From Limnohabitans sp. DM1 (GTDB lineage Bacteria; Pseudomonadota; Gammaproteobacteria; Burkholderiales; Burkholderiaceae_C), in assembly GCF_001269385.1 (NCBI RefSeq), contig NZ_CXOO01000045.1:2161-66160 (forward strand): a stretch of 64,000 bases of DNA, read 5' to 3'. Positions 38,888-57,319 of this stretch are shown in pieces; position 1 is the stretch's first letter; each line of letters opens with the position of its first letter. Both the position numbers and the translations under genes were made by a program. Below the pieces are notes generated by a model. The model made no database searches. It was not told the DNA's origin and saw nothing but the letters and a program-made list of their open reading frames with translations.

Positions 38888-38894
38888 CCATGCA

Positions 38895-38910: not shown

Positions 38911-38929
38911 ACCCAAAAACACCAATTTA

Positions 38930-38958
38930 TTGACTTATAGTCAATTGAATTAATTCAA
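38930..38958 (+). promoter_or_regulatory. Adjacent AT-rich palindromes upstream of cmr1 (promoter/operator)
   Basis: Two abutting dyads, TTGACTTATAGTCAA (38930-38944) and the perfect TTGAATTAATTCAA (38945-38958), lie 15-43 bp before the cmr1 start. This is the most AT-rich spot nearby. TTGACT makes a plausible -35 element, but the -10 is not well defined. Likely the promoter and a dimeric regulator site for the cmr operon; inferred from structure and position. No clear Shine-Dalgarno precedes cmr1. Confidence 0.5.
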
Positions 38959-38972
38959 TAGTTTCCAAAAAA

Positions 38973-40055
38973 ATGCAGACACGGCAACTCCAAATTCAGT
39001 TTCACACCCCCGCATTTCTGGGCGATGCCACCCAAAGCGGCCGCTGGCGCACCCCGCCCTTCAAAGCCCAGCTGCGCCAATGGTGGCGCGTGGCCTATGC
39101 GGCGCAGCAACAGTTCGCGGTCAACGTGCGCGACATGCGCGACATCGAAGGGCGTCTGTTTGGGCATGCTTGGCTGGAGAACGACAGTTTTGAGCGAGAC
39201 GGCAAACGCGTCGCTACCACTGCACGCAAAAGCGAAGTTCGTCTTCGCCTGAATCACTGGTCTGAGGGGCAGCTGAAAAGTTGGGACAGGCTGGAAACTG
39301 GAACAGTGTTCCACCCGGAAGCTGAAAAGGTTCGCCACCAAGTAGGCCCCCACGCATACCTGGGATACGGACCACTGGATGGTCGAGGCGGCACCAAATT
39401 ACAAGACAAGCAAGGCAAGGCCAATGCGGCCATTCAAGCCAATGAGCAAGCCCAACTGTCCATCGCTTTCCCGGACGAGCACGCTATAACACTGGACCAA
39501 GCTCTCCAGCTCATGAACCTGTACGGCACCGTGGGCGGACGTAGCCGCAACGGCTGGGGCTCTTACAGCCTGCATCGCACCGACGGCCAGACCATGCCCA
39601 ACATCGAAACACCTGGCCAAGCCCTCGCCAAATGTCTGAGCGTGGACTGGCCTCATGCCTTGGGTACAGACAGCCAAGGTACGTTGATTTGGCAAACGCA
39701 GCCCCACAAGGACTGGGCTGGCCTGATGAAAACACTGGCCCAAATCAAGATCGCATTGCGAACCCAATTTGTGTTCACGACCGGCAAAACACAAAACCCT
39801 GAAGACCGCCATTGGCTGAGCTACCCCGTCACCAACCACACCGTCACCAGCTGGGGCAACAACGCCCGCCTGCCCAACAGCTTGCGCTTCAAAGTTCGCC
39901 CGATGGCTGATGGCCAGCTGGTCGGCGTCGTCTTCCACATACCGCACAAGCCGCCCGCTGAATTTGGCTCCAGCCCCCAAACCCTCGAACGCATCTGGCG
40001 TCAAGTCCACAGCCACCTGGACCAAACCGCCACCTTGAAACGCACCGCCGCCTGA
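38973..40055 (+). CDS. cmr1: Type III-B RAMP protein Cmr1
   Basis: 360 residues. It opens with the RAMP-type strand MQTRQLQIQFHTPAFLGDA followed by WRTPPFKAQLRQWWRVAYAA, the Cmr1 pattern, and has the glycine-rich RAMP loop GGRSRNGWGSYSL near residue 187. Cmr1 caps the 3' end of the crRNA-bound Cmr complex near the target RNA. First gene of the cmr operon; cmr2 follows by 5 bp. The unit cmr1 to cas6 is tightly packed and probably co-transcribed. Confidence 0.9.
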   Translation: MQTRQLQIQFHTPAFLGDATQSGRWRTPPFKAQLRQWWRVAYAAQQQFAVNVRDMRDIEGRLFGHAWLENDSFERDGKRVATTARKSEVRLRLNHWSEGQLKSWDRLETGTVFHPEAEKVRHQVGPHAYLGYGPLDGRGGTKLQDKQGKANAAIQANEQAQLSIAFPDEHAITLDQALQLMNLYGTVGGRSRNGWGSYSLHRTDGQTMPNIETPGQALAKCLSVDWPHALGTDSQGTLIWQTQPHKDWAGLMKTLAQIKIALRTQFVFTTGKTQNPEDRHWLSYPVTNHTVTSWGNNARLPNSLRFKVRPMADGQLVGVVFHIPHKPPAEFGSSPQTLERIWRQVHSHLDQTATLKRTAA

Positions 40056-40060
40056 ACACC

Positions 40061-43000
40061 ATGACCCACCCCACCACACCAGACAACGTCTGGCACACCA
40101 AAATTGCCGCCCGCATCCACGACCCAGCCGAAAAAGCGCTGGTGCTCATGCGCGACCCTGCGGGCCACGAAAACGGCACCTCGCTGGCGCTCAGCCGCCT
40201 CATGGGTCTGCGCAACTACAGCGAAACCGACGACGCCGATCAACGCACGCTCAGCGCCCTGCTGTTCAAAGCCAGCCTGCCCACGGGCATGTACAAAACC
40301 GTGCAGCGTGCCGACTGGTGGGCAGCTGCGGCAGACCGCCCGCAGTGGCCCATGCAAGCGCTGGACGTCACCACGAAGACGGGCCAAGAAGTCACCCTCA
40401 AAGTGGCGCCTGGCTCGCAAGTGCGTTTCAGCAGCCAGCCCGTGCTGATTCACCCGCTGACTGGCCAACAAATCGACCTGGGCCAGCTCAAAGACACCGA
40501 AGTGGCTGACATCAAAGAGCGCAGCCTGGACCACCACCTGGGCTTGCTCAAATCGCTGGGCATTCAGGGCGACCAGCCGCACGACATGCGCCGCACCCTG
40601 CTGGCCCTGTGGCGATTTGCCCCCGAGTTGAGCGAAGAGCAAGACAACGGCACTTTGGGTGCCCTGTGGCACCAACTGCCCGCCGACACCCGCGTCCCCG
40701 ACCACAGCATCTGGGACCACCTGGACCTGACCAGTGCCTTTGCCGGAGCCTTTGCGGCCGACCCGCAACAAGAAGTCGCCTTGCTCACCGTCTCACTCGG
40801 CCCCGTGCAAAGCTTCATCGCCGCCGCACGCTCCACCAGCGACCTGTGGGCCGGTTCGCACCTGCTCTCGCGCCTGGCCTGGGAATGCATGCGCCCCCTG
40901 TGCGAAGCGCTCGGGCCAGACGCCGTGCTGTTTCCCCGCCTGCGCGGCATCCCGCAAGTGGACCTGTGGCTGCGCGACCAAATGCACCTGCCCGCAGACC
41001 TGTTCAAAGACTGCGAATGGCAAAAGGGTGCCACCGACGCCAACCCCCTGTTCAGCGCCGCCCTGCCCAACCGCTTTGTGGCCGTGGTGCCCGCATCGCA
41101 AGCGCAAGCCATCGCCCAGCAGTGCGAACAAGCCGTGCGCGAATGGCTGCAATCCACGGGCCAAGACGTGGTCAACCGCCTCCTCGACGCCGCAGGCCTG
41201 AACACCGGGGCCGAACAGCACTGCCACCAACAAATGCGCGAGCAACTCGCGGGCTTTCCTGAAGTGCATTGGGCCACCGTGCCGTTTTCGCTCATCCACC
41301 CGCGCAACGCCGACAAGCAAAACAACCTCGACACCACCCAGCTGAGTGCGGCCATGGCCCCGTTCTTTGGCGTGTCACCCGACCAGCCCAGCGGCTTTCT
41401 GTCCAGCCCCGCCTGGCAAGTGCTCAAAGACGACATGGCTTGGGACAATAAAACCACTTTCTGGTCACCCAACCCCGGCACGCTTTACCCGGCGGTGTTT
41501 GACTTGGCCGAACGCGCCTTGGCCGCCGCCAAAGCCTCGCGCACCTTTTCGCAACTGCCGCAACATGGCTGGCGCTGCTCCCTCACGGGCGAAAGCGAAT
41601 GGCTCACCACCGACCCGGCGCAATTGCAAAAGTCTTACCGGCAGCAAAAAGACACGCTGTGGGCCAAAGTGCACCAAGCCAAAAAATCCTGGGCCAAAGC
41701 CGGTGAGCACCTGGGCGGCTTGTCGGCGCTCAAACGCCTGTGGCCTACCGTGTTTGCCGACCAAGTCAGCCAAGCCACGGGCAAAGCCTGCGGTCGATTT
41801 GTGGTCAGCACCCACACCATGGCGCTGGCCAGCCACTTAGAGCAATGGCTCGCTTCGGGTGCCCCCGCGCAACAAGATTTTTCTCAGGCCTGCAAAGACC
41901 TGGACCCTGAATCGGTGGCCCTGCCGCGCCGCCTCATGCGCCACGACCAGAACCACGTTGCCGACGCCAAAGTCTTGCCCGGCTTGCTCGAAGCCGCCCG
42001 CGACAGCGACGACGAAACGGCTTACGCCGAAACTCAAAAAGTCGTGCGCAACACCTTAGGGCTAGACAAACTCGAAACCTACTACAGCCTCATCATGATG
42101 GACGGCGACCGCATGGGCGCCATCCTGTCGGGCGACACCGCCACCCACACCGCCATCCCCTACCGCGACAGCTTTCACCCCAACGTGCAAAAAGGCTTTG
42201 ACGCGCAAGCGGACCAACACAAAGCCCTCAAGGCCTACGGCGACCAGCCCCGTGCCATCAGCCCCAACCGGCACCTGGCCATCTCGGGCGCACTCAACGA
42301 CTTCTCGCAAATCGTGGTGCGCCATGTGGTGGAACAAGAGCATCTGGGCCGCGTGATTTACGCCGGGGGTGACGACGTGCTGGCCATGCTGCCCACCGCC
42401 GACCTGCTCAACACCATGCAACGCCTGCGCCACGCCTACAGCGGCAGCGCCCCGCAAGACGCCCAAACCGACTGGGGCATGGTGCGCGACCGCCAAGGCG
42501 ATGTGCGTGAGCAACTGGTGCTCAACAAAGGCTTTGCCTGGCTCAACGGCCGCCTCATGCGCATGATGGGCGAACACGCCACCGCGTCGACCGGCGCCAT
42601 CGTGGCCCACCACCAAGCCCCGCTGGGTGCTGTATTGCAAGAACTGCGCGCCGCCGAAAAACGCGCCAAAAACGAGGGCGGCAGAAATGCTTTCTCCATC
42701 ACCATCGTCAAACGCTCGGGCGGTGCGCTCTACCTGACCGAAAAATGGGGCGAACCCGTTGACCTGCTGCAAGACCTGATCGGCTTTTTGCGTGCTGATG
42801 GCACCTCCAGCCGCGCTGTGTTCAACAGCCTGGAATGGATGCGCGACCTGCCCGAACCCACGGACTCGGCCACAACCGAGATGCTGGCCAGTTTGTTGGC
42901 CTACCAACTCGACCGCCAAGCCAAAGGCAGCGCGAACGCACAAGCGCCCGAACTGGCTCAGCGCCTGGCCCAACTCTGCGCCGCACAAGTGCGCAGGCAA

Positions 43001-43129
43001 GAGCGCAAGGGCCTGAACTGGCTCGCCAACTTCATGGGCGTGGCCGAATTTTTGGCCCGTGAAACCCGCACAGGCTACACCACGGCCAACACCCACACCA
43101 CCACCGAATCCACGGAAGCCAACGCATGA
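40061..43129 (+). CDS. cmr2: Type III-B Cas10/Cmr2 large subunit
   Basis: 1022 residues. An HD-type motif is present at the N-terminus (KIAARIHDPAEK, His20-Asp21). The Cmr2 core starts with SLGPVQSFIAAARSTSDLWAGS near residue 246. The first palm has MMDGDRMG (~679-686), and the cyclase palm has the intact GGDD (769-772, in IYAGGDDVLAML). With both features it should make cyclic oligoadenylate and perhaps cut DNA; activity is inferred from motifs. The Cys/His residues of a zinc finger are not obvious by eye. It overlaps cmr3 by 4 bp. Confidence 0.95.
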   Translation: MTHPTTPDNVWHTKIAARIHDPAEKALVLMRDPAGHENGTSLALSRLMGLRNYSETDDADQRTLSALLFKASLPTGMYKTVQRADWWAAAADRPQWPMQALDVTTKTGQEVTLKVAPGSQVRFSSQPVLIHPLTGQQIDLGQLKDTEVADIKERSLDHHLGLLKSLGIQGDQPHDMRRTLLALWRFAPELSEEQDNGTLGALWHQLPADTRVPDHSIWDHLDLTSAFAGAFAADPQQEVALLTVSLGPVQSFIAAARSTSDLWAGSHLLSRLAWECMRPLCEALGPDAVLFPRLRGIPQVDLWLRDQMHLPADLFKDCEWQKGATDANPLFSAALPNRFVAVVPASQAQAIAQQCEQAVREWLQSTGQDVVNRLLDAAGLNTGAEQHCHQQMREQLAGFPEVHWATVPFSLIHPRNADKQNNLDTTQLSAAMAPFFGVSPDQPSGFLSSPAWQVLKDDMAWDNKTTFWSPNPGTLYPAVFDLAERALAAAKASRTFSQLPQHGWRCSLTGESEWLTTDPAQLQKSYRQQKDTLWAKVHQAKKSWAKAGEHLGGLSALKRLWPTVFADQVSQATGKACGRFVVSTHTMALASHLEQWLASGAPAQQDFSQACKDLDPESVALPRRLMRHDQNHVADAKVLPGLLEAARDSDDETAYAETQKVVRNTLGLDKLETYYSLIMMDGDRMGAILSGDTATHTAIPYRDSFHPNVQKGFDAQADQHKALKAYGDQPRAISPNRHLAISGALNDFSQIVVRHVVEQEHLGRVIYAGGDDVLAMLPTADLLNTMQRLRHAYSGSAPQDAQTDWGMVRDRQGDVREQLVLNKGFAWLNGRLMRMMGEHATASTGAIVAHHQAPLGAVLQELRAAEKRAKNEGGRNAFSITIVKRSGGALYLTEKWGEPVDLLQDLIGFLRADGTSSRAVFNSLEWMRDLPEPTDSATTEMLASLLAYQLDRQAKGSANAQAPELAQRLAQLCAAQVRRQERKGLNWLANFMGVAEFLARETRTGYTTANTHTTTESTEANA

Positions 43130-44292
43130 GCGCCGCCACCCCACACCACACCGAACACCGCTTCATTGAGCCACTCGACGTGCTCTTTTTGCGCGGCAAC
43201 AAACTCTTTGGCGACCCCGGCAGCCACGGCGAATCGCTGGTGCCCCCATGGCCATCGGCCGCTGCGGGCGCATTGCGCAGCCACCTGCTGGCGCAAGACG
43301 GCACCGACCTGGCCGCCTTTGCCAAAGGGCACATCACCCACCCCAGCCTGGGCACACCCGCTGCGCCCGGCCCTTTTGCGCTCACCGCCTTCACGCTGGT
43401 GCGCCAGCTTGACGATGGCAGGCTGCAAACCCTGCACGCACTGCCCGCCGACCTGGTCGTGACCGACAAAGACGGTGACGCCAAACACATCCAAAGCCTG
43501 CGCCCCCAAGCGCCGCACACCGGCCTGCTCAACTCCAGCGGCTTTGCCCAAGTGCCCGTGCTGGCCGAAACCGAACGGCGCAAAGCCACCAGCGGCCTGT
43601 GGCTCAGCCAATCAGGTTGGCAACGCTACCTGAACGGCCAATTGCCCAACGCCGAACACGACCTCGTCAAAACCAGCGAGCTGTGGGCCATCGACTCGCG
43701 CGTGGGCATTGGCCTGAACGCCGACACCCGCAGCGCCGACGACGGCAAACTCTTCACCACCCAAGCCGTGGCTTTTAAACCCCGCGTGGGCTTTGTGGCC
43801 AGCGTGCGCGGTGCCACCTTGCCCGCACAAGGCAGCCTGCGCTTGGGCGGTGACGGCCGCGCCGCCAGCAGCCAAAGCGTGGACCACCAAGCCCCGCAGG
43901 CCGACCTGCACGCCATCGCCACCCAAGGCCGCTGCCGCGTCGTGCTGACCAGCCCCGGCTTGTTTGCCCAAGGCTGGCTGCCCAACGGCTTTCAACGCGA
44001 AGCCGACGGCTACCACTGGTTAAACCTGCACGACGTGCGCGCCCGCTTGGTCTGCGCCACCGTGCCGCGCTCAGAGACCATCTCGGGCTGGGACCTGGCG
44101 AACTGGCAACCCAAAGCCGCCCTGCGTGCCGCCCCCACCGGCAGCGTCTATTGGCTCGACCAATTACAAGCCAGCCCCGAAGCGCTCGGCAAGCTTGCCG
44201 ACAGCGGCTTTTGGTCCGATGCCTGTGAAGATACGCACCGCCGCGCCGAAGGCTTCAACCGCTTTGCCTTTGCCGCCTACGACTGCATCTGA
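43126..44292 (+). CDS. cmr3: Type III-B RAMP protein Cmr3
   Basis: 388 residues. The start FIEPLDVLFLRGNKLFGDPGSHG and PPWPSAAAGALRSHLL are the Cmr3 hallmark. Cmr3 sits with Cmr2 at the foot of the complex and holds the 5' crRNA handle. It overlaps cmr2 by 4 bp and is followed by 63 bp before cmr4, the largest gap within the operon. A copy of the GGCAAGCTTGCC palindrome lies inside the gene at 44188-44199, coding for GKLA. Confidence 0.92.
   Translation: MSAATPHHTEHRFIEPLDVLFLRGNKLFGDPGSHGESLVPPWPSAAAGALRSHLLAQDGTDLAAFAKGHITHPSLGTPAAPGPFALTAFTLVRQLDDGRLQTLHALPADLVVTDKDGDAKHIQSLRPQAPHTGLLNSSGFAQVPVLAETERRKATSGLWLSQSGWQRYLNGQLPNAEHDLVKTSELWAIDSRVGIGLNADTRSADDGKLFTTQAVAFKPRVGFVASVRGATLPAQGSLRLGGDGRAASSQSVDHQAPQADLHAIATQGRCRVVLTSPGLFAQGWLPNGFQREADGYHWLNLHDVRARLVCATVPRSETISGWDLANWQPKAALRAAPTGSVYWLDQLQASPEALGKLADSGFWSDACEDTHRRAEGFNRFAFAAYDCI
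44186..44201. promoter_or_regulatory. GGCAAGCTTGCC palindrome, copy 3 (inside cmr3)
   Basis: Perfect TCGGCAAGCTTGCCGA within the cmr3 coding region, about 100 bp before its stop and 155 bp before cmr4. Its presence in a gene argues for either chance plus codon choice or a site not tied to a promoter. Confidence 0.35.
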
Positions 44293-45746
<1,454 letters not shown>

Positions 45747-45747
45747 C

Positions 45748-47133
45748 ATGCCCATAGCCGCCGTACCCGAATACCTGGGCAAAGACTTCAAAACCGCTTC
45801 CCCCGGCCAGCGATTTGGCGTTTATTTGCCTATCTGGACAGCACGCGCCGACCAAGAAGCCGATGTGCGCAAACGCGCCGAAGCCAAAAGTCGCGAGGGT
45901 GATGAAGTAGCAGCACTGCTCAGCCGTGGCATGGACACTGCCATCGCCGCCCTACGTGCACGCGACCGCAAACCACTTGCAGGCCTCTGGGACAAAAACG
46001 ACTTTGCAGCCCGCCATGCATGGAATGAAGTTTGCGCACTCAGCGCCGCCGACAAGCACATCGGCAATGCCATGACCCAGCGTCAAAACCAAATCTTTGA
46101 CCACATGCCCCCTGCCCAAGGCCTGCGCCTGCACGCCACCGCCGTGGCCCCGTTCACCACCGGGCTGGGCAACGAACACCCGCTCGAAAACGGCTTTGCC
46201 TTCCTCAACCCCTATGGCCTGCCTTATTTGGCCGGCAGCGGGGTCAAAGGCGTGCTGCGCACAGCCGCCAAAGAACTGGCCAGCGGCCAATGGGACAGCC
46301 AAGAATGGCGTCACGCCGAAGACCCGCGCCACGAAGTGCACAACAAACAAGGCCAGCGCCTGTTTGATGTCAGCGACCTCGACGTGCTCTTTGGCAGCGA
46401 AGCCCTGGACGGTGAAAACCACCTGCGCGGCGTGCTCAGCTTTTGGGACGTCATCCCGCAAATCGAGGGCAACAGCCTCATGGTCGAAATCATGACGCCG
46501 CACCAAAGCCATTACTACCAAGACAAAGACGTTGCAGGCAGCAACAGCCCACACGACAGCGGCTCGCCCAACCCCATCAGCTTTTTAACCGTGCCGCCCA
46601 AGTCGCAATTTGCTTTCCATGTGGTGTGCGACAGCGCCCGCCTGGCACACCTGGCCCCCGACTTGGCCCACAACGACCGCTGGAAAACACTGCTGACCGA
46701 AGCCTTTGAACACGCCTTTGCCTGGCTGGGTTTTGGTGCCAAAACTTCGGTGGGCTATGGGGCCATGGACCGCGACACCAAGGCCGAAGAAAAACTTGCC
46801 AACGCCCAAGCCGAAGCACAAGCCGCCGCCGAGCAAGCCGCCAAAATGGCCAACCTGAGCGACAACGCCCGCCAGATCGAAACCTTTGTGCAAACCTGCC
46901 AACAAAAGCTCGTTGCCATGGGTGCCAACGGCAAAAAAGACAAAGCCAACACCGAGCTGCACGCCAAAGCCCGCGCCCTGTCGAAAGCCGCCCTTGAGGG
47001 TGCCGACTGGACCGCCGAAGAAAAGCGTGCCGCCGCCGAGGCGCTGGCCGAATGGCTGCCCCAAGTCGTGGAAGTCGACATGAAAGACGAGCGCAAAAAA
47101 CTCAAACTCGCCGTGCTGCGGGGCGAAGCCTGA
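45748..47133 (+). CDS. cmr6: Type III-B RAMP protein Cmr6 with C-terminal extension
   Basis: 461 residues. The RAMP core (about 110-337) has LHATAVAPFTTGLGNEHPLE, the loop YLAGSGVKGVLRTAAKEL and the closing GFGAKTSVGYGAMD. Cmr6 is the backbone subunit next to Cmr1. The last ~120 residues are an Ala/Lys/Glu-rich, mainly helical extension (repeated AEAQAAAEQAAK), which makes the protein longer than compact Cmr6 homologues. The N-terminal ~110 residues are also longer than the minimal form. Confidence 0.92.
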   Translation: MPIAAVPEYLGKDFKTASPGQRFGVYLPIWTARADQEADVRKRAEAKSREGDEVAALLSRGMDTAIAALRARDRKPLAGLWDKNDFAARHAWNEVCALSAADKHIGNAMTQRQNQIFDHMPPAQGLRLHATAVAPFTTGLGNEHPLENGFAFLNPYGLPYLAGSGVKGVLRTAAKELASGQWDSQEWRHAEDPRHEVHNKQGQRLFDVSDLDVLFGSEALDGENHLRGVLSFWDVIPQIEGNSLMVEIMTPHQSHYYQDKDVAGSNSPHDSGSPNPISFLTVPPKSQFAFHVVCDSARLAHLAPDLAHNDRWKTLLTEAFEHAFAWLGFGAKTSVGYGAMDRDTKAEEKLANAQAEAQAAAEQAAKMANLSDNARQIETFVQTCQQKLVAMGANGKKDKANTELHAKARALSKAALEGADWTAEEKRAAAEALAEWLPQVVEVDMKDERKKLKLAVLRGEA

Positions 47134-47137
47134 GCCC

Positions 47138-47455
47138 ATGACCACCTGGTTCATCAGCCGCCACCCCGGTGCCAAGGTCTGGGCCGCAGAGCAAGGTCTG
47201 CACATCGACCAGCATCTGACCCATCTGGACACCACACTCGTCCAGCGTGGCGACACCGTCATCGGGACCCTTCCTGTGCACCTGGCTGCTGCCGTCTGCA
47301 GCCAAGGCGCACGGTTTTTTAACCTCAGCCTGGACCTGCCCGCCCACTGGCGCGGGCGCGAACTCAGCGCCGACGAACTGCGCCAGTGCCATGCACGGCT
47401 TGAAGCTTTTCACGTCTCGCCCAGCCCATTGCCCGAATTGACCACAGCACCATGA
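47138..47455 (+). CDS. csx16: Csx16 (VVA1548 family)
   Basis: 105 residues. It matches the VVA1548 family along its length: FISRHPGAKVWAAEQG, DQHLTHLDTTLVQRGD, VIGTLPVHLAAAVCSQG, FNLSLDLPAHWRGRELSADEL. Csx16 is found only with type III systems; recent work places it among candidate cyclic-oligoadenylate ring nucleases that shut the signal off. It overlaps the CARF nuclease gene by 4 bp, so enzyme and signal-remover would be made together. Activity here is inferred from the family. Confidence 0.9.
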   Translation: MTTWFISRHPGAKVWAAEQGLHIDQHLTHLDTTLVQRGDTVIGTLPVHLAAAVCSQGARFFNLSLDLPAHWRGRELSADELRQCHARLEAFHVSPSPLPELTTAP

Positions 47456-48588
47456 CCACCCCCGCCCAAATCCAACTCATGCTCGTGTCCGAGCAAGCCG
47501 CGCCCAACCTGCTGCCCGCGCTGGACCCGGCCATGAAACCCCGTGAAGCCGTGCTGCTGGTCAGCCAAAAAATGGCGCACCGCGCCCAGGCGCTGCAAGC
47601 TGTGCTGCAAGAGTCGGGCATCAAAACCCAAACCGTGCCCCTGCCCGACGAGCACAACATGGCCGCGCTCGAAAGCATCCTGATGGACGTGGCCACCCAG
47701 CGCGACGGCCAATCCCTGGCCCTGAACGTGACCGGCGGCAACAAACTCATGGCCCTGGCCGCGCAAGCTGTGGCACAAGCTGCGGGCTGGCCCGCGTTTT
47801 ATGTCGATGTGGACACCGACCAAATCATCTGGCTCGACAAAACCCGCCCCGCCCAAGCCCTGACCCAGCAACTGCGCCTGCGCCACTACCTGCGCGGCTA
47901 CGGCTTTACATTGGCCGAAGGCATCGAACGGCCCCAGCCCAACACCGCCTGGCAAACCCTGCTGCAAGACCTGATCATCAACGTCGGCTCCCTTGAAGAA
48001 GCCATTGGCCAACTCAACCACCTGAGCCAAGAAGCCCAACGCAGCCTGCGCGTCACCCTCAGCCCCCGACAGCGCGAGCACCACGGCCTGGACGCACTGC
48101 TGCGCAAGTTCGAACAAGCCCAAGTCCTCAAACGCCAAGGCGACACGCTCGTCTTTGCCACCGAAGCCGCCCGCAGCTTTGCCAATGGCGGCTGGATCGA
48201 GCACCACGTCTACCAAAGCGTGAGCCAAGTCACGGGCGACCTGGCCATCCGCGACAAAGCGGCCAACCTGCAAGTGCTGGGCGACAGCGGACAGCCCAAC
48301 GAAATCGACGTCGCCTTCATGGCCCGCAACCGCCTGTTCATGGTCGAGTGCAAAACCGCCCGCATGAACCACGAAGGCGACCTCAAGGCCAACGACACCC
48401 TGTACAAACTGGCCGAAAACTGCCGCCGCATCGGCGGCCTAGGCACACGCGGCATGCTGGCCACCTACCGCCCGCTACGCGACTCCGAGCAACGCCTGGC
48501 CAAAGCCCTGAACATCGAAGTTGTGGCTGGGCGCGACCTGAACCGCCTGGGCGAGCGCCTCAAACAATGGGTCAAACCCAAAGCCTGA
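47452..48588 (+). CDS. can2: Card1/Can2-like CARF nuclease (DUF1887)
   Basis: 378 residues. The CARF domain is N-terminal, with the ligand loop NVTGGNKLMALAA (GGNK ~95-98). The C-terminal nuclease has the DUF1887 PD-(D/E)xK pattern: GGWIEHHVY (Glu250), NEIDVAF (Asp286) and MVECKT (Glu299-x-Lys301). All expected catalytic residues are present. Known Card1/Can2 enzymes bind cA4 and nick DNA and/or cut RNA, driving dormancy or abortive defence. It lies between csx16 and cas6, in one transcription unit. Confidence 0.92.
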   Translation: MTTPAQIQLMLVSEQAAPNLLPALDPAMKPREAVLLVSQKMAHRAQALQAVLQESGIKTQTVPLPDEHNMAALESILMDVATQRDGQSLALNVTGGNKLMALAAQAVAQAAGWPAFYVDVDTDQIIWLDKTRPAQALTQQLRLRHYLRGYGFTLAEGIERPQPNTAWQTLLQDLIINVGSLEEAIGQLNHLSQEAQRSLRVTLSPRQREHHGLDALLRKFEQAQVLKRQGDTLVFATEAARSFANGGWIEHHVYQSVSQVTGDLAIRDKAANLQVLGDSGQPNEIDVAFMARNRLFMVECKTARMNHEGDLKANDTLYKLAENCRRIGGLGTRGMLATYRPLRDSEQRLAKALNIEVVAGRDLNRLGERLKQWVKPKA

Positions 48589-48617
48589 CCCCCAAAAAAG
48601 CCAAACATCGCCACCCC

Positions 48618-49589
48618 ATGCACAGCATCACCCGCATCATCACCACCCTGCAAGCCACCCAAACCGTGGCCTGGCCCCACTTTGCGGGCAGCACACTGCG
48701 CGGCGCATTTGGCCGGGCCCTGCGCCGCGCCGCCTGCATCACCGGCCAAAACCAATGCACCGGCTGCCCCCTGCGCAACAGCTGCGCCTATGGCGTGGTG
48801 TTTGACCCCGCCGCCCCCGCCCAGCCCCTGCACCCTTCGTTCAGAGACGGCCTGCCGCGCTACCTTGTCCAACCCCCAGCGCTGGGGGCTTGCCAACTGC
48901 AGGCAGGGCAAACCCAAAGCTTTGATGTGCTGCTCTTGCCCGGCACCCAAGCACACCACGGCCTGATCGAACACACCCTGCGCAACGCCGTCGAAAAAGA
49001 ACTCTTTGCACCGGGCCTGTTCAAACTCATGGACACACAAACCAGCCAAACCCACGTTTTGTCGGCAAGCACCGAGACACCCGCCCACATGCACGCCACA
49101 ACTGGCCACATCACCCTGCGGTGGCTGACCCCGCTGCGCCTGCAGCACCAAGGCAAACCCATCTTCAAAGCCCAACAACTCGACGCACCCGGCCTGGTCC
49201 GCGCCCTGCTGCGCCGCCAAATGCAGTGGCAACAAATCACCGACCAAAAGCCTGCAACCACCACCCCCATCGCCACAACAACCCCCACACTTGGGCAGCC
49301 CGACCCCATGCATCAAGCCAACGCCTGCATGCTCGACACACGCAACCTGCAGTGGCACGACATCCAACGCCACTCAGGCACCCAAAACCAAAAACTGCCT
49401 TTGGGCGGCCTGATCGGCAGCGCAACTTTGAGCGGCCCCGTCGTGGCATTGCAAACCCTGCTGCCCCTGCTGCAAATGGGCGAACAACTGCACATCGGCA
49501 AAGAAACCGTCATGGGCCTCGGCCGCTACCAACTGAGCGCTGGCGAAAATACGCCCCCGCAAGCCACCGAATGCCCCATGGACGGATAG
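48618..49589 (+). CDS. cas6: Cas6-family pre-crRNA endoribonuclease
   Basis: 323 residues. A RAMP-type protein with FAGSTLRGAFGRALRRAAC near the start, a Cys cluster QCTGCPLRNSCAYG (~48-61) and the C-terminal glycine loop LGGLIGSATLSG and KETVMGLGRYQL. These mark the Cas6 group with a Cys-rich insertion (pre-crRNA processing RAMP). It should cut repeats 8 nt upstream of each spacer. ATG at 48618 was chosen; the frame is open further upstream but runs inside can2. Last gene before the array. Confidence 0.9.
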   Translation: MHSITRIITTLQATQTVAWPHFAGSTLRGAFGRALRRAACITGQNQCTGCPLRNSCAYGVVFDPAAPAQPLHPSFRDGLPRYLVQPPALGACQLQAGQTQSFDVLLLPGTQAHHGLIEHTLRNAVEKELFAPGLFKLMDTQTSQTHVLSASTETPAHMHATTGHITLRWLTPLRLQHQGKPIFKAQQLDAPGLVRALLRRQMQWQQITDQKPATTTPIATTTPTLGQPDPMHQANACMLDTRNLQWHDIQRHSGTQNQKLPLGGLIGSATLSGPVVALQTLLPLLQMGEQLHIGKETVMGLGRYQLSAGENTPPQATECPMDG

Positions 49590-49721
49590 ACTCACAAGGT
49601 TTGGCCAGTTCCTCAACCCGACACCGCAGCAGACCGACATAGGCTCAGCTTTTCATGACCCAAATTCTTTGGCAACTCCCCACGCAAGTGCTTGATGCCA
49701 TTGGATTTTTTGACGTGAGGA
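49590..49721 (+). promoter_or_regulatory. Probable CRISPR leader
   Basis: The 132 bp between the cas6 stop and the first repeat contain no gene. The last ~25 bp are T-rich (GGATTTTTTGACGTGAGGA). The decayed repeat at the opposite end supports this side as the leader end, where new spacers enter. No clear promoter boxes were identified. Confidence 0.5.
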
Positions 49722-52700
49722 GCCAAAACCAAGCCCCGATATTCAGGGGATTAAGACGACTGGATCTGAATGCCATCGTGCACATAGGCCCGCCAAAACC
49801 AAGCCCCGATATTCAGGGGATTAAGACGGGTAAACTCGCCCCATGGGCAAGCGACACCGCCAAAACCAAGCCCCGATATTCAGGGGATTAAGACGCTCCA
49901 TGCTTTCGCAGTGGTGCGCGTGCTCTTCGCCAAAACCAAGCCCCGATATTCAGGGGATTAAGACGCTTCTCGTCAGCGTCATAACGGTATGCCTTGCCGC
50001 CAAAACCAAGCCCCGATATTCAGGGGATTAAGACCCTCGATGCTCAGCAGGTCCTCGGGGTCGGTGAGCCAAAACCAAGCCCCGATATTCAGGGGATTAA
50101 GACACTTGAATATGTATAAAGCCCACAAAACGGGCCAAAACCAAGCCCCGATATTCAGGGGATTAAGACCCAACAACTTGACCCGTCCGGGTGCCGGACT
50201 CGGCCAAAACCAAGCCCCGATATTCAGGGGATTAAGACGACCCCAATTTCTGCGAACTCCGCAGACAAAGCATCGCCAAAACCAAGCCCCGATATTCAGG
50301 GGATTAAGACATTATCTTGGCTCGCTTTGACTCCTCGGGCGTCGCCAAAACCAAGCCCCGATATTCAGGGGATTAAGACCACGCGGTTTGCCTCGTTGAT
50401 GAACTGAAAAGCGCCAAAACCAAGCCCCGATATTCAGGGGATTAAGACGTCTCGCACCGTGCCACTGTTCGTGGCCTGGGTCGCCAAAACCAAGCCCCGA
50501 TATTCAGGGGATTAAGACCTTCTGCAATTGCTTCTGCCCTTGCCCAATAGGCCAAAACCAAGCCCCGATATTCAGGGGATTAAGACCCGTACCGCCGCCT
50601 GAGACTTTGCCGCCCAAGCCAAAACCAAGCCCCGATATTCAGGGGATTAAGACCCCCTGTGCGGTACCAAGCTCAAAAAGTTTGTAGGGGCCAAAACCAA
50701 GCCCCGATATTCAGGGGATTAAGACGTTTGTGGGTTTCCATCTTCTTTGCCAAATAGCCAAAACCAAGCCCCGATATTCAGGGGATTAAGACCGGTTGCG
50801 CATGGCTTTGGCGTCATCCATACCCGCCAAAACCAAGCCCCGATATTCAGGGGATTAAGACGTCTTGCGCCGTGTCTTTGGCCCCGCGCTGACCGGCCAA
50901 AACCAAGCCCCGATATTCAGGGGATTAAGACGCGGGCGTGCGCCCAGCAGCCTTAACTGCGCGAAGCCAAAACCAAGCCCCGATATTCAGGGGATTAAGA
51001 CTTCGCAAGCACGGTTGCGCTGTGGCTCGATGCCAAAACCAAGCCCCGATATTCAGGGGATTAAGACGATCATTTGACTTCCTTGGGTTGTTGATTGTTT
51101 GCCAAAACCAAGCCCCGATATTCAGGGGATTAAGACTTAGTTCGTGCCAGCGCATTGGATTTTTAAGCGCATCGCCAAAACCAAGCCCCGATATTCAGGG
51201 GATTAAGACTGACCCCAATTTCTGCGAACTCCGCAGACAAAGCAGCCAAAACCAAGCCCCGATATTCAGGGGATTAAGACCATGGCAGATAGACCTTTTT
51301 CTCGTTCATTTTTTGGCCAAAACCAAGCCCCGATATTCAGGGGATTAAGACTCCAAAAATTGCTCTTTGCTTTCGCAGTTGGAGAGCCAAAACCAAGCCC
51401 CGATATTCAGGGGATTAAGACTGCTGCCTTTTGCGCTGAAGCAAAGTCATCGTGCCAAAACCAAGCCCCGATATTCAGGGGATTAAGACACCAAGGCCAG
51501 GGCGGCCAGTTCGTTGATGATGGGCCAAAACCAAGCCCCGATATTCAGGGGATTAAGACATTTGACATTTTTGATACCTTTTTAAGTTTCGCCAAAACCA
51601 AGCCCCGATATTCAGGGGATTAAGACCACAGATCCGCGCTCACTGGTGCGCACAGTGACGCCAAAACCAAGCCCCGATATTCAGGGGATTAAGACTTGGC
51701 ACGTAGACTTGGCCGAAACTTGCCATCAGCCAAAACCAAGCCCCGATATTCAGGGGATTAAGACGGCGCTGGCTGCCCAAAAACGCTGGGTATGCGGCCA
51801 AAACCAAGCCCCGATATTCAGGGGATTAAGACTCTTCGGACTGGGCCTCTTCGGCTTCGATGGTGCCAAAACCAAGCCCCGATATTCAGGGGATTAAGAC
51901 CAAATTGTGCGGGCATTGCTTGGGCGTGGTCTTCGCCAAAACCAAGCCCCGATATTCAGGGGATTAAGACACGGGCGGCCGTGCATTTTCCAATTGATGG
52001 CAGGCCAAAACCAAGCCCCGATATTCAGGGGATTAAGACAAGTTGACTGGGCCGCAAATGTTGTCGTCGTTGCCAAAACCAAGCCCCGATATTCAGGGGA
52101 TTAAGACCACTCCTCGCCGTCGAATACCGAAACGGTGTGACGCCAAAACCAAGCCCCGATATTCAGGGGATTAAGACCCAAAGAATCGGCGATGCGCTCC
52201 AAGCTGGTTGCCAAAACCAAGCCCCGATATTCAGGGGATTAAGACGTTGAGTGCCAGCGTTACGGTATAACGGGTTTCGTGGCCAAAACCAAGCCCCGAT
52301 ATTCAGGGGATTAAGACATGAATTTCAGCTAAGTCCTTGATTCCAAACGCGCCAAAACCAAGCCCCGATATTCAGGGGATTAAGACTCCGCAGCCAAGGC
52401 ATCAGCCTCATTTTTAGATGGCCAAAACCAAGCCCCGATATTCAGGGGATTAAGACCAATTTTTGAATTCAACAAATCAACTGCATCGCCAAAACCAAGC
52501 CCCGATATTCAGGGGATTAAGACTGAATGCGCTTTGTCAGTTGTGCTACGAAGTTGCCAAAACCAAGCCCCGATATTCAGGGGATTAAGACGGTATGCAC
52601 TGGCGCAAGACGGTACACAATCGCCAAAACCAAGCCCCGATATTCAGGGGATTAAGACACCTCGCCCCCAGTGAACTGCTCAATGGCAAGGCCAAAACCA

Positions 52701-52796
52701 AGCCCCGATATTCAGGGGATTAAGACCCTTGGCTTTGGCTGCTGTCATGCTTTCTTCAAGGCCAAACCCAAGCCCCGAAAATCAGGGGATTGCCCC
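49722..52796 (+). CRISPR. CRISPR array, 44 intact 36-bp repeats plus one decayed terminal repeat
   Basis: Intact repeats of 36 bp begin GCCAAAACCAAGCCCC, contain a CCCC/GGGG dyad and end GGGGATTAAGAC. They run from 49722-49757 to 52691-52726, all apparently identical. A 45th copy (52761-52796) has AAACCC in place of AAAACC, GAAAATC in the loop and a lost 3' end. The 44 spacers are unique in length, 30-37 bp. A crRNA 5' handle of ATTAAGAC is expected. Direction: leader at the cas6 side, decayed repeat at the far end. Spacers 8 (50239-50274) and 22 (51210-51244) share 34 bp. Spacer sequences look non-repetitive otherwise; their targets cannot be identified without a search. Confidence 0.98.
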
Positions 52797-54684: not shown

Positions 54685-54969
54685 ATGAACACACGTCACC
54701 TGTTCCTGGTGGGTTACGACATCCGAGAAAACCCCATTCGCCGCCGCGCCCTGCGCGACGTGCAGCACCACGCGCTGGGTGGGCAAAAGTCGTTTTACGA
54801 ATGCTGGCTCAGCGTGGCCGAGCTGCAAACCCTGCTGGCCCAAATGCGCCAGCGCATCCACAACGACACCGACCGTGTGGTCTTCATCCGCCTGGATGGC
54901 CGCAGCCAGAGCCTGCAACTGGGCCAGGCAGAGCCCATCGACAGCGCCGATTACTTCCACATCGCCTGA
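54685..54969 (+). CDS. cas2: Cas2 (first copy)
   Basis: 94 residues. Ferredoxin-like Cas2 start MNTRHLFLVGYDIRENPIRR, with the usual YDIR (Asp ~12), then ALGGQKSFYECWLS and VVFIRLDGRSQSLQLG at the dimer edge. Cas2 dimers bridge Cas1 dimers in the spacer integrase. An in-frame upstream Met at 54640 is not supported by the family start. It differs greatly from the second Cas2 (56879-57274), so this is not a simple duplication. Confidence 0.9.
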   Translation: MNTRHLFLVGYDIRENPIRRRALRDVQHHALGGQKSFYECWLSVAELQTLLAQMRQRIHNDTDRVVFIRLDGRSQSLQLGQAEPIDSADYFHIA

Positions 54970-55006
54970 ACACCGGCACCACAAGCCCACACACCGAAAG
55001 CCCAGC

Positions 55007-56047
55007 ATGAGCACCCTCTACATCGACCGCCAAGGCAGCCAACTCACCGTGCAGACTGGCGTGCTGCACATCGCCACCCCGAATGGTGAGGCCGACCGCC
55101 GTCTGCCCCTCAAATACCTGGACCGCATCGTCTTGCGCACCGACACGCAGCTCAGCAGCAAAGTGCTGTGCGCTTTGGCCGACAGCGGTGTCAACCTCAT
55201 TGCCCTGGGTGGGCGCGGTGGTCAAAAAATTGCCCAAATCACCGGCACGCCGCACAACGACGCCCGCCGCCGCTGGCAACAGGTGCTTACCCTCAGCCAG
55301 CCGCAGGCCTGCGCCCAGTTGGCGCACGGCATCATCCACAGCAAAGTCAAGCGCCAACGCGCCACCTTGCAACACATGGCAGCGCTCAGGCCCGACATCC
55401 GCAAACCCCTGTTTGACGGGCAGCAGCGCCTGGCGGGCATCTTGGCCACGCTGCAAAGCGCAGACACAGAAGCCCACTCGCTGGACCAGCTGCGCGGGCT
55501 GGAAGGTGCCGCCGCCGCCATGTATTTCGAGGCCTATTTCAGCGGCTTTGCACCGGCCTTGGGGGCCACCGGCCGCAACCGACGCCCGCCGCGTGACCCG
55601 GTCAACGCGGTGCTGTCGCTCAGTTACACCATGCTGTATGCCCAAGCCACCGCCGCCTGCTGGGCCGCCGGGCTGGACCCGGCTCTGGGCGCTTTGCACA
55701 CCCTGAGCCACGGCCGGGCCGCGCTGGCTTGCGACCTGATGGAGCCCTATCGCCCGCTGATTGACCTGTGGGTCTGGCACCAGTTTCGTCAAGGCAACTT
55801 GCGTCCCGAGCACTTTGGCCACGATGGCGCGGGTGCCTGCCTGCTGAGCAAAGCAGGCCGGGGGCACTTTTACCCCGCCTGGGAACAACAAGCGCACCAC
55901 CACCAGCGCAGTCTGCTGCGCTATGCCCGTGCCATGGACAAGGCCCTTATGCATGGCAGCCCCCAAGCCGCTTGGTCACACCTGATGGACAGCCCTGCCG
56001 AACACGCCACCAACACCGCCACACAAGCCACCCAGCCAAACGGATAG
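55007..56047 (+). CDS. cas1: Cas1 integrase (catalytic copy)
   Basis: 346 residues. N-terminal beta domain LPLKYLDRIVLRTDTQLSS, then the helical catalytic domain with Glu166 (RGLEGAAAAMYFEAYF), His231 (LGALHTLS) and Asp243 (ALACDLMEPYRP). The triad is complete. It joins new spacers at the leader-end repeat with Cas2. Start MSTLYIDRQG at 55007; stop is followed 9 bp later by the second Cas1-like gene. A Thr/Ala-rich tail follows the conserved domain. Confidence 0.95.
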   Translation: MSTLYIDRQGSQLTVQTGVLHIATPNGEADRRLPLKYLDRIVLRTDTQLSSKVLCALADSGVNLIALGGRGGQKIAQITGTPHNDARRRWQQVLTLSQPQACAQLAHGIIHSKVKRQRATLQHMAALRPDIRKPLFDGQQRLAGILATLQSADTEAHSLDQLRGLEGAAAAMYFEAYFSGFAPALGATGRNRRPPRDPVNAVLSLSYTMLYAQATAACWAAGLDPALGALHTLSHGRAALACDLMEPYRPLIDLWVWHQFRQGNLRPEHFGHDGAGACLLSKAGRGHFYPAWEQQAHHHQRSLLRYARAMDKALMHGSPQAAWSHLMDSPAEHATNTATQATQPNG

Positions 56048-56056
56048 GACCGAGCC

Positions 56057-56854
56057 ATGCAACACCGCGCCCTGCACACCCCTGCCATGAACGCCCTGCC
56101 CCTTTATCTGCACAACGGCAGCGCCCAGCGCCTGGACCTGGACAGCGCCCAACGGCTGCGCATCGAGCGCAAAGATTTGCCAGAGCGGCGCATCCCGCTG
56201 CACCACGTCTCGCGCATCGTGTGCAGCAGCACGCTGGACATCAGCGCCCGCGCCCTCATGGCCTGCATGAAAAGCGGCATTCCCCTGGCAGTGGTGGATA
56301 CCAACGGCGAAACCCTGGGCTGGTGCCTGGGCGCTCGGCGCAAAGAAACCAGCTTGCGCCAACTGCTGACGCACGCCCTGGACGACCAAGCCTGGCCCAC
56401 CCACTACGCCGAATGGCTGGCTCAGCAACACGCCGCCACCGCCGCGCAAACCTTGCTTTTGTGCGGCGTTCCTACCACCGCTGCCGCACGCCACAACCCC
56501 AGAACGGCGCTGTGCAATGCCCATTTTGTGAAACACAGCCAAGGCTGTGCCCAACAAGTGGATGCCCTGGCCCTGCTGGCCCAACACGAGCTGGCCGCCC
56601 AACTGACCCAAGCCACCAGCGCCCCCGAGCTGCTGGCCTGGCACCGCCCGGGGCTCAACCTGATCGAAGACTTGGGGCAAGTGATTGGCCTGCACGCGCA
56701 CACCGACCTGCACCATGCGCCGCTGTTGCCCGAAGCCGACAAGCTCACGCCCTGGGCCGTTCGCCACTACGAACGCCACGCCGCCCACTGGCAGCAACGC
56801 ATCGGGCAACTGATGTATGCGTTTGAACAATTCCTGCGCAGCCACTGGCTTTGA
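56057..56854 (+). CDS. Cas1-like protein without catalytic triad
   Basis: 265 residues. The N-terminal ~95 residues align with the Cas1 beta domain: RIPLHHVSRIVCSSTLDISARALMA and SGIPLAVVDTNGETLG against the matching stretch of the first Cas1. The C-terminal helical domain (~100-265) is shorter than Cas1 and shows no G-x-E-G-A motif, no H...D-L-x-E-x-x-R motif and no other obvious triad. So it is probably a structural or regulatory Cas1 paralogue. An AGGA site 8 nt upstream supports the start. Homology is judged by eye; a structure prediction would settle it. Confidence 0.7.
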   Translation: MQHRALHTPAMNALPLYLHNGSAQRLDLDSAQRLRIERKDLPERRIPLHHVSRIVCSSTLDISARALMACMKSGIPLAVVDTNGETLGWCLGARRKETSLRQLLTHALDDQAWPTHYAEWLAQQHAATAAQTLLLCGVPTTAAARHNPRTALCNAHFVKHSQGCAQQVDALALLAQHELAAQLTQATSAPELLAWHRPGLNLIEDLGQVIGLHAHTDLHHAPLLPEADKLTPWAVRHYERHAAHWQQRIGQLMYAFEQFLRSHWL

Positions 56855-56878
56855 AGCCCCTGCACCTTGTCGCACACC

Positions 56879-57274
56879 ATGGCCACCAAAACCCACCGCA
56901 TGCAGTCCATTCCCCACAGCCACGCACAGCGCTGGCTGCTGGCCCACGACATCCGTGACAAAAAACGGCTGCAACGCGTTTGGCGCTTTTTGCGGCAAGA
57001 GGGGGTGCGATTGCAATACTCGGTGTACTTGCTGGCAGGCACACGCCAACAGGTCGAAAACATCATCGACCGCCTGCGTGAACTCATTGACGAAGCTGCA
57101 GACGATGTGCGCATCTATCCCCTGACCGAAAACACCCGCATCTGGGGCCTGGGCACGCAATTCAATGACGACGGCAACACGCTGAGCGATGCGTTCATGG
57201 ACAAGCTCAGAGCGCTTGAGCAAGACACCGAACCCAGCAACGCAGAAGACGTCAAAAGGCTCAACCTTTCATGA
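56879..57274 (+). CDS. cas2: Cas2 (second copy)
   Basis: 131 residues from the chosen ATG. Canonical Cas2: RWLLAHDIRDKKRLQRVWRF with the conserved Asp, LRQEGVRLQYSVYLLAG and a C-terminal VRIYPLTENTRIWGLG. It has a longer acidic C-terminal tail (NDDGNTLSDAFMDKLRALEQ) than the first Cas2. It follows the Cas1-like gene by 24 bp, so cas2-cas1-cas1'-cas2' read as one unit. Alternative starts at 56867 (TTG) and 56900 are possible. Confidence 0.9.
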   Translation: MATKTHRMQSIPHSHAQRWLLAHDIRDKKRLQRVWRFLRQEGVRLQYSVYLLAGTRQQVENIIDRLRELIDEAADDVRIYPLTENTRIWGLGTQFNDDGNTLSDAFMDKLRALEQDTEPSNAEDVKRLNLS

Positions 57275-57283
57275 CACAGATTC

Positions 57284-57319
57284 GCCAAACCCAAGCCCCG
57301 TCAATCAGGGGGCTCATGC
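57284..57319 (+). repeat. Isolated decayed CRISPR repeat after second cas2
   Basis: A 36-bp stretch begins GCCAAACCCAAGCCCCG and continues with AATCAGGGGG, in the same orientation as the array. Its AAACCC variant is shared only with the decayed terminal repeat at 52761, 4.5 kb away, not with the intact repeats. It starts 9 bp after the second cas2 stop. Confidence 0.8.

What the first reader, a model, noticed from the sequence alone, without database searches (positions are those of the whole stretch)
54685..57274. Unusual double adaptation module: cas2-cas1-cas1'-cas2'
Four adaptation genes in a row encode two quite different Cas2 proteins, one catalytic Cas1 and one Cas1-like protein. Standard modules have one of each. 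The two Cas2 copies are too different to be a fresh duplication, so the set may form a mixed (asymmetric) Cas1-Cas1'/Cas2-Cas2' integrase. It serves a stand-alone type III-B locus whose own acquisition machinery is less studied.
Basis: partly seen in the sequence, partly recalled or inferred. Interest (0 to 1): 0.85.

Follow-up and report, generated by a model that had tools for sequence, protein, structure and literature searches.

The report
Four-gene CRISPR memory-writing module
This bacterium writes new CRISPR memories with four proteins instead of the usual two: an active Cas1 enzyme, a related Cas1 that has lost its active site, and two old and different Cas2 proteins; the same set recurs in many other bacteria, so it looks like a stable machine whose mixed assembly has yet to be tested.

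Summary
Four adjacent genes encode Cas2a, catalytic Cas1, a Cas1 relative without the active site (Cas1') and Cas2b, beside a type III-B (Cmr) locus and a 44-repeat array. They are the only Cas1/Cas2 genes found in the genome. The set is no freak: all four genes occur in 69 of 80 loci fetched with Cas2a. In 369 genomes of the class, 20 carry Cas1', all 20 with Cas2a; 136 carry any Cas1. Cas2a and Cas2b are separate clades, 19% identical here. Cas1' has a single origin, a predicted two-domain Cas1 fold and no conserved histidine, and is under purifying selection. Three loci lost Cas1' but keep Cas1 and both Cas2s; six related cas2a-cas2b-cas1 loci lack it. So the Cas2 pair looks older and Cas1' a later, losable partner. 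33 of 41 downstream arrays have an IHF-like site 23-25 nt before the first repeat; so does this one. The likeliest mechanism is a mixed integrase with Cas1' as permanently non-catalytic protomer; no complex could be modelled. Cas1' is already catalogued (PADLOC 'Cas1, diverged variant, second in the loci'); ten literature searches found no paper on the four-gene set.

The parts
54685..54969 (+). cas2a: Cas2 paralog with signature YAxGGQKSVxE and a conserved C-terminal tail
   Evidence: PF09827 over cut-off; AF2 model pLDDT 83.5, best matches solved Cas2 chains; clade of 81 of 81
55007..56047 (+). cas1: catalytic Cas1 (E166, H231, D243, E246 present)
   Evidence: PF01867 full length, 224.8 bits; residues invariant or nearly so in 75 module Cas1s
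56057..56854 (+). cas1': Cas1-fold protein without the catalytic residues (alternative start 56090)
   Evidence: PDLC01185 in all 67 family members scanned; AF2 pLDDT 87.7, Cas1 fold over both domains; triad positions not conserved in 77 sequences
56879..57274 (+). cas2b: second Cas2 paralog (alternative start TTG 56867)
   Evidence: PF09827 62.4 bits; clade of 72 of 72 plus second Cas2 of tandem modules
49590..49721 (+). leader of the array, between cas6 and first repeat
   Evidence: sequence; polarity inferred from the degenerate terminal repeat at the far end
49671..49697 (+). conserved leader element GGCAACTCCCCACGCAAGTGCTTGATG; its 3' half (49685-49697) is an IHF-like site, ending 24 nt before the first repeat
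   Evidence: position-specific score 19.3 bits, offset 24; 1 mismatch to the recalled IHF consensus
49722..52726 (+). CRISPR array: 44 exact 36-nt repeats, 43 different spacers of 30-37 nt
52761..52796 (+). degenerate terminal repeat (7 mismatches)
57231..57319 (+). remnant of a second array at the end of and right after cas2b: leader-like 53 nt (75% identical to 49615-49667) then one degenerate repeat (57284-57319, 9 mismatches); the conserved leader element is missing
37724..49589 (+). type III-B effector and signalling genes: CARF (NE0113), RAMP (probable Cmr1, weak), Cas10/Cmr2, Cmr3, Cmr4, Cmr5, Cmr6, Csx16, CARF-PDDEXK, Cas6

Best explanation
An IHF-assisted type III-B spacer-acquisition module whose integrase is built from two kinds of Cas1 and two kinds of Cas2. 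Shown: one catalytic Cas1, a full-length Cas1-fold pseudoenzyme, two ancient Cas2 paralogs, conserved order, purifying selection, and an IHF-like leader site at fixed distance. Inferred: Cas2a and Cas2b pair as the central dimer; each outer Cas1 pair is one catalytic Cas1 plus one Cas1' as the protomer that never does chemistry; the conserved, alone-disordered tail of Cas2a docks on Cas1'; IHF bends the leader so that the Cas1 active sites attack the leader end and then the spacer end of the first repeat. In the solved type III Cas6-RT-Cas1-Cas2 integrase one Cas1 copy of each dimer is non-catalytic although both come from one gene (for other integrases I recall the same); here a separate gene would supply that copy.
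For: Order cas2a-cas1-cas1'-cas2b in 65 of 80 Cas2a loci (one with a partial cas2b match) and all four genes in 69 of 80. Class survey: strong Cas2a in 20 of 20 Cas1'-bearing genomes and Cas2b in 19 of 19 whose contig does not end first (one of these cut short). Cas1' 75 of 75 monophyletic, support 0.997; Cas2a 81 of 81 (0.906); Cas2b 72 of 72 (0.977). Cas1' aligns to Cas1 over its whole length (hhalign probability 99.4 global, 98.7 local); its AF2 model gives only Cas1, Cas1-containing, Cas1-like or casposase chains in the best 50 (Z 13.1 to 9.8; N-domain 2.4 A over 80, C-domain 3.4 A over 160). Catalytic positions: E166 75/75, H231 74/75, D243 74/75, E246 72/75 (2 more D) in Cas1; H at the H231 column in 3 of 77 Cas1', E or D at the E246 column in 18 of 77, no conserved E at the E166 column. 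dN/dS of Cas1' 0.14-0.39 in the eight closest pairs (ratios). PMC8102632 (passages): catalytic Cas1a and non-catalytic Cas1b copies; the Cas2 C-terminus touches Cas1b. Cas2a's tail is conserved in this module (72 of 81 by one strict pattern) and fails that pattern in 6 of 6 tandem loci without Cas1'. IHF-like site: 33 matches at 23-25 nt in 41 downstream arrays, 31 at all other offsets together; IHF-beta and an IHF-alpha-like gene in the genome.
Against: No complex was modelled and no contact between the proteins is shown. Cas1' was lost at least three times while Cas1 and both Cas2s stayed intact, and those loci keep the Cas2a tail, so neither Cas1' nor its pairing with the tail is strictly needed for keeping the genes. 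Tandem cas2a-cas2b-cas1 loci do without Cas1' in place; three of six of their Cas2a still end in YLG. Cas1' has the lowest identity of the four in seven of the eight closest pairs, and its dN/dS reaches about 0.6 in some more distant pairs. D205, opposite Cas1 D243, is still D in 51 of 77 Cas1'. No natural fusion of two different module proteins was seen. The Cas1/Cas1' relation is unresolved in the tree (support 0.089). Whole-chain superpositions of the Cas1' model on solved Cas1 are poor (rmsd about 10-15 A, Foldseek TM 0.25-0.45); only the separate domains fit well.
Confidence: 0.5

Rival explanations
1. Cas1' is an accessory adaptor outside the core hexamer (in role like Csn2 or Cas4): it helps to capture, size or deliver DNA to a normal Cas1-Cas2a-Cas2b integrase.
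For: Cas1' can be lost while the other three stay and tandem loci lack it in place; its C-domain sequence is free to vary. Array sizes hint at a quantitative role: median 26 repeats in 29 untruncated arrays with Cas1' against 7 and 3 in two loci without it (one-sided Mann-Whitney p = 0.015 with n = 2, weak; the third loss, L181, has no array in the fetched stretch).
Against: It keeps the two-domain Cas1 fold and N-domain positions that Cas1 also keeps, such as P47 and R53 opposite Cas1 P34 and R40, as expected of a protein that still pairs with Cas1. The Cas2a tail goes with the four-gene set.
Confidence: 0.27
2. Cas2a and Cas2b form two separate homodimers with different jobs, so that two integrase forms, or one integrase and one nuclease or regulator, exist side by side.
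For: Both keep the Cas2 aspartate in all sequences (81 of 81 and 73 of 73) and both are Cas2 domains over cut-off.
Against: They are together in 19 of 19 Cas1' modules whose contig does not end first and stay together after Cas1' loss and in tandem loci. Two integrase forms would not explain the single catalytic Cas1.
Confidence: 0.15
3. Cas1' and one Cas2 are decaying duplicates without function.
For: Three losses of Cas1' and several decayed modules (L092, L182, L183).
Against: Purifying selection on all four genes, single origin and wide spread, open frames in nearly all copies.
Confidence: 0.03

Closest known systems
PADLOC-DB PDLC01185 'Cas1, diverged variant, second in the loci'
   Same: This is the Cas1' family: it matches 67 of 67 members scanned, best E 5e-147.
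   Different: The library gives a label only; it says nothing of the two Cas2s, the lost active site, the order, the leader or a function.
Canonical Cas1-Cas2 integrase (E. coli type I-E and others)
   Same: A catalytic Cas1, Cas2, and (recalled for I-E) a leader with an IHF site; the reviewed complexes have four Cas1 and two Cas2 (PMC9048733, passage).
   Different: Two Cas1-fold genes, one without the active site, and two Cas2 genes from separate clades.
Type III Cas6-RT-Cas1-Cas2 integrase (PMC8102632, passages)
   Same: Catalytic Cas1a and non-catalytic Cas1b roles; Cas2 C-terminus on Cas1b.
   Different: There both roles come from one gene fused to Cas6 and RT; here from two genes.
Tandem cas2a-cas2b-cas1 loci found here (L184-L187, L189, L190; five genomes)
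   Same: Second Cas2 falls in the Cas2b clade, first Cas2 is sister to Cas2a (support 0.872); an IHF-like site lies near the array in all five loci that have one; Cmr genes lie nearby in L186 and L187, Csx16 in L185 and L187.
   Different: No Cas1' in place (two of the five genomes, G1132 and G1043, have a four-gene module elsewhere), no conserved Cas2a tail, and the IHF-like site is at 26-27 instead of 23-25 nt.

Membership tests
Cas1 (PF01867) as active integrase subunit: gene 55007-56047 | Full-length profile match and catalytic E, H, D/E (identity of these residues recalled) | tested here: met
   224.8 bits; E166, H231, D243, E246 conserved in 75 module Cas1s
Cas1 (PF01867): gene 56057-56854 | Cas1 two-domain fold | tested here: met
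   AF2 pLDDT 87.7; best 50 entries all Cas1, Cas1-containing, Cas1-like or casposase, Z 13.1-9.8; each domain fits on its own, the whole chain with rmsd about 10-15 A
Cas1 (PF01867): gene 56057-56854 | Catalytic triad | tested here: not met
   E166 and E246 positions are P139 and Q208 in the window protein; family columns not conserved (alignment near E166 is uncertain). The window protein has H196 at the H231 column, but only 3 of 77 members do
PDLC01185 Cas1, diverged variant, second in the loci | Profile match; second Cas1 after a normal Cas1 | tested here: met
   67 of 67 members; gene order
Cas2 (PF09827): both genes | Profile match over cut-off and conserved aspartate of the first strand | tested here: met
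   35.3 and 62.4 bits, cut-off 23.8; D in 81 of 81 and 73 of 73
Type III-B CRISPR-Cas | Cas10/Cmr2, Cmr3, Cmr4, Cmr5, Cmr6 together | tested here: met
   TIGR02577, TIGR02580, TIGR01881, TIGR01898 over cut-off; Cmr3 99.5 of 100.4 in NCBIfam but 220.1 bits in Pfam
Canonical one-Cas1, one-Cas2 module | One Cas1 gene and one Cas2 gene | tested here: not met
   Two of each, the only ones found in the genome
IHF-assisted adaptation | IHF site in the leader at fixed distance from the first repeat | tested here: met
   33 matches with at most 2 mismatches at 23-25 nt in 41 downstream arrays; window 1 mismatch at 24 (consensus recalled)
IHF-assisted adaptation | IHF binds and is needed | not testable with these tools
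   IHF-beta over cut-off and an IHF-alpha-like gene just below it are present
Mixed Cas1-Cas1'/Cas2a-Cas2b integrase | Physical complex of the four proteins | not testable with these tools
   single-chain prediction only

The most novel reading that the evidence does not exclude
The module encodes an integrase that is asymmetric by gene: a Cas2a-Cas2b centre with Cas1/Cas1' arms, so that the two ends of the captured DNA are held by different subunits and orientation or order of the two insertion steps is built into the protein instead of coming only from the DNA and host factors.
Probability: 0.25. Interest if true: 0.85.

Novelty: new variant of a known kind. Interest (0 to 1): 0.62.

Why it matters
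Every solved Cas1-Cas2 integrase I know of (recalled) uses identical Cas1 and identical Cas2 copies, so the distinct jobs of catalytic and non-catalytic copies and the origin of orientation are hard to separate. If this module splits those jobs between genes, each can be deleted, tagged or mutated alone. It is also common (20 of 136 Cas1-bearing genomes in the class sample) and lies mostly beside type III systems, whose acquisition is less studied. The natural series of cas2a-cas2b-cas1, the full four-gene set, and four-gene sets that lost Cas1' gives ready comparisons.

Tried and rejected
Asymmetry instead of a host factor for finding the leader: disfavoured by the IHF-like leader site. In the window alone that pattern is no commoner than chance (25 matches with at most 1 mismatch, 22 expected); only the fixed distance across loci is informative. 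A first look seemed to show that tandem loci lack the site, because it checked only the best-scoring place in each locus; one search tested the array flanks and found it at 26-27 nt in five of five tandem loci with an array, so that claim was dropped.

Fresh duplication of Cas2, or a second adaptation module brought in by chance: rejected by the trees and the survey.

Natural fusions as evidence of partnership: none between different module proteins in the loci examined. Spacer targets: one twice-acquired spacer has no exact match in viral contigs; the whole array gave one weak match, 40 nt at 90% in 12 cyanophage records, E 2e-3, read as chance. Rfam: no match in 37000-58500. Array size against Cas1' presence: too few loci without Cas1'. 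Cas1'/Cas1 sisterhood: unresolved. Covariation between the proteins was not tried because about 70 paired sequences are too few.

Literature: ten searches showed no paper on the four-gene module. Two of the lists were capped (20 of 399; 25 of 223, mostly Cas13 and other noise). Passages only were read of PMC3150331, PMC9048733, PMC12259127, PMC12216489 and PMC8102632 (one search found no passage). The library lacks most subscription papers and no supplements were read, so prior description is possible; a recalled paper on leader motifs was not held.

Rows dropped: three duplicate loci (L006, L012, L034) and the cut L042 from the Cas1' set; Cas1' of 300 aa or more from the tree (75 of 77 used); Cas1 rows below 200 bits; two near-identical leaders (L106, L116) from the motif model; 69 of 81 Cas2a and 67 of 77 Cas1' rows were given to structure prediction.
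Full report
What is there. The window holds a type III-B locus: a CARF gene of the NE0113 family, a RAMP gene (probable Cmr1, weak matches only), Cas10/Cmr2, Cmr3-Cmr6, Csx16, a CARF-PDDEXK gene and Cas6 (37724-49589). Then come an array of 44 exact repeats and 43 different spacers (49722-52726), a hipA/hipB-like pair on the other strand and the four adaptation genes at 54685-57274. Pfam calls them Cas2, Cas1, partial Cas1 and Cas2. They are the only Cas1 and Cas2 genes found in the 4.9-Mb genome, and the repeat was found nowhere else in it at up to 3 mismatches.

It is a stable module. A search with Cas2a in 84,980 species genomes found 174 relatives, of which the best 80 were kept, by record title in Zeta-, Gamma-, Beta- and Alphaproteobacteria, Acidobacteria and a few others. 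Of the 80, 65 have cas2a-cas1-cas1'-cas2b in order (L046 with a partial cas2b match) and four more have all four genes with a split, extra or frameshifted copy (L058, L069, L086, L089). Six lie at or near a contig end (L042, L063, L079, L094, L097, L100), two lack only Cas1' (L080, L104), one has a decayed cas1 and no cas1' (L092), and two are broken off after cas2a or within cas1 (L099, L105). In the window's family at least 8 of 399 genomes, its own included, have Cas1' after a normal Cas1 (cas2a was not seen in the fetched stretch of L009 and is cut in L005). Another 33 genomes matched in that single-protein search; the 22 of them inspected have ordinary Cas1. In 369 genomes of the class, own included, 20 have full Cas1' (100 bits or more), all among the 23 with strong Cas2a (90 bits or more). 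Of the three with Cas2a only, G923 is cut by the contig end, G926 lost Cas1', and G836 has a decayed cas1. A weaker Cas2a match, G875, also has a broken cas1 and no cas1' in place. 136 of the 369 have any Cas1, among them all 20. With the public profile PDLC01185, 8 of 398 genomes of the phylum match; seven belong to modules (one cut by a contig end) and one, L040, is an ordinary Cas1. The surveys overlap (L034 and L046, for example, hold the same locus), so their counts must not be added. Type III genes lie nearby: 48 of 80 loci have Cas10, Cmr3, Cmr4 or Cmr6 within the fetched stretch, and 67 of 80 some type III marker if Csx16 and CARF genes count (my count); many of the rest are short contigs.

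Cas1'. It is one full-length family and aligns to catalytic Cas1 end to end by profile. The AF2 model (67 sequences, pLDDT 87.7) has the Cas1 N-terminal sheet domain and helical C-terminal domain; the best 50 solved entries are Cas1, Cas1-containing, Cas1-like or casposase chains. Whole chains superpose badly (rmsd about 10-15 A; Foldseek TM 0.25-0.45), probably because the two domains sit differently; each domain alone fits well. The catalytic positions of Cas1 are not kept. No histidine column exceeds 25% and the best kept acid is E239, near the C-terminus, at 83%. That these positions are catalytic is recalled. All four genes look under purifying selection. Cas1' dN/dS is 0.14-0.39 against 0.08-0.25 for Cas1 in the eight closest pairs (ratios worked out); in seven of the eight Cas1' has the lowest identity of the four, and in some more distant pairs its ratio reaches about 0.6.

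The two Cas2s. Cas2a (81 of 81, plus L145, the module of G923) and Cas2b (72 of 72, plus the second Cas2 of six tandem loci and L175, another fetch of one of them) are separate clades. Within a locus they share a median 29% identity, 19% here. A related architecture, cas2a-cas2b-cas1 without Cas1' in place, turned up in six loci of five genomes (L184-L187, L189, L190); two of these genomes, G1132 and G1043, have a four-gene module elsewhere, the other three have no full Cas1'. Its first Cas2 is sister to Cas2a with support 0.872 and shares the GQKS-type motif in part, but not the conserved tail, although three of six still end in YLG. So the Cas2 pair appears older than the split of the two architectures. 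In the AF2 model of Cas2a the core is ordered and the conserved tail is not (block means 70, 60 and 42 from residue 71 on), as expected of a tail that folds on a partner (inference). In the type III Cas6-RT-Cas1-Cas2 structure the Cas2 C-terminus contacts the non-catalytic Cas1b (PMC8102632, passages), which is why I place the tail on Cas1'. The tail is kept in the three loci that lost Cas1', which fits recent loss but is no support.

Losses. L080 nests with L061 (support 0.944), L104 with L068, L091 and L114 (0.985), L181 (G926) with L074 and L076 (0.964); these neighbours have Cas1'. L181 still carries about the first twenty codons of Cas1' between cas1 and cas2b, so loss is certain there, and the whole G926 genome gave no full Cas1'. 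For L080 and L104 only the fetched locus was examined. In no module that was not cut or decayed was a Cas2 missing while the rest stayed intact; as the 80 loci were found by Cas2a, loss of Cas2a itself could show only in the class survey, where it did not.

Leader. In Cas1'-bearing loci arrays lie downstream of cas2b in 39 cases and upstream of cas2a in 9. A 27-nt element, consensus GGCAAnCCCCnTTGCAAnnnnTTGATT, exceeds the 99th percentile of shuffled leaders in 25 of 32 and ends 23-25 nt before the first recurring repeat word in all 25 (leave-one-out scores, controls single-base shuffles, seed chosen by eye from the same leaders). Its 3' half is the reverse complement of the recalled IHF consensus: 33 matches with at most 2 mismatches at 23-25 nt in 41 downstream arrays, against 31 at all other offsets together. 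The window's leader has it at 24 nt. The Cas1'-less L080 and the decayed L182 keep the whole element, the decayed L092 and L183 at least the IHF-like half; the Cas1'-less L104 has no such site at its short array. The tandem loci have the IHF-like half too, at 26-27 nt in five of five with an array, so it is shared by both architectures. The genome has IHF-beta over cut-off and an IHF-alpha-like gene just below it. A second, dead array position sits right at the end of cas2b: a leader copy without this element and one degenerate repeat.

Activity. All 43 spacers differ; spacers 8 and 22 come from the same target shifted by one base, best read as two separate acquisitions.

Mechanism and limits. 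The likeliest reading is a mixed integrase with a dedicated non-catalytic Cas1' protomer and a Cas2a-Cas2b centre, helped by IHF. Every step of assembly is inferred. The main rival, an accessory role for Cas1' outside the hexamer, is left open by its losses. Novelty: the Cas1' family is catalogued; the four-gene composition, the ancient Cas2 pair, the tandem relatives, the losses and the phased leader site were seen in no paper listed by ten searches of an open-access library, which is not proof of absence.

Noticed in passing
52904-54570 (-): A hipA/hipB-like pair (HipA_C 140.6 bits; HipB-like match below cut-off) sits between the array and the adaptation genes, an unusual place for a toxin-antitoxin pair.
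   Followed up: partly
57231-57319: Leader copy and single degenerate repeat at the end of cas2b: remnant of a second array at the place where most relatives have theirs. It shares an AAACCC variant with the terminal repeat at 52761.
   Followed up: yes
50239 and 51210: Two spacers from the same target, shifted by one base: probable independent acquisitions.
   Followed up: partly
L184-L187, L189, L190: Tandem cas2a-cas2b-cas1 loci without Cas1', some beside Cmr genes, with an IHF-like site 26-27 nt from the array.
   Followed up: partly
L188:6718-8208: A Cas1 in a 725-aa open frame followed by two Cas2 genes that both score as Cas2b-like, beside Cmr genes: a third two-Cas2 arrangement.
   Followed up: no
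L181:6470-6645: Deletion scar with about the first twenty codons of cas1' between cas1 and cas2b.
   Followed up: yes
L069:8466-11453: A broken cas2a before cas1 and a second, intact cas2a between cas1 and cas1'.
   Followed up: no
47138-48588: csx16 overlaps a CARF-PDDEXK effector gene by a few bases; a signal-degrader and effector pair, if Csx16 is a ring nuclease (recalled).
   Followed up: no
54685-54969: Cas2a falls below the NCBIfam Cas2 cut-off, so automatic annotation may list it as hypothetical.
   Followed up: no
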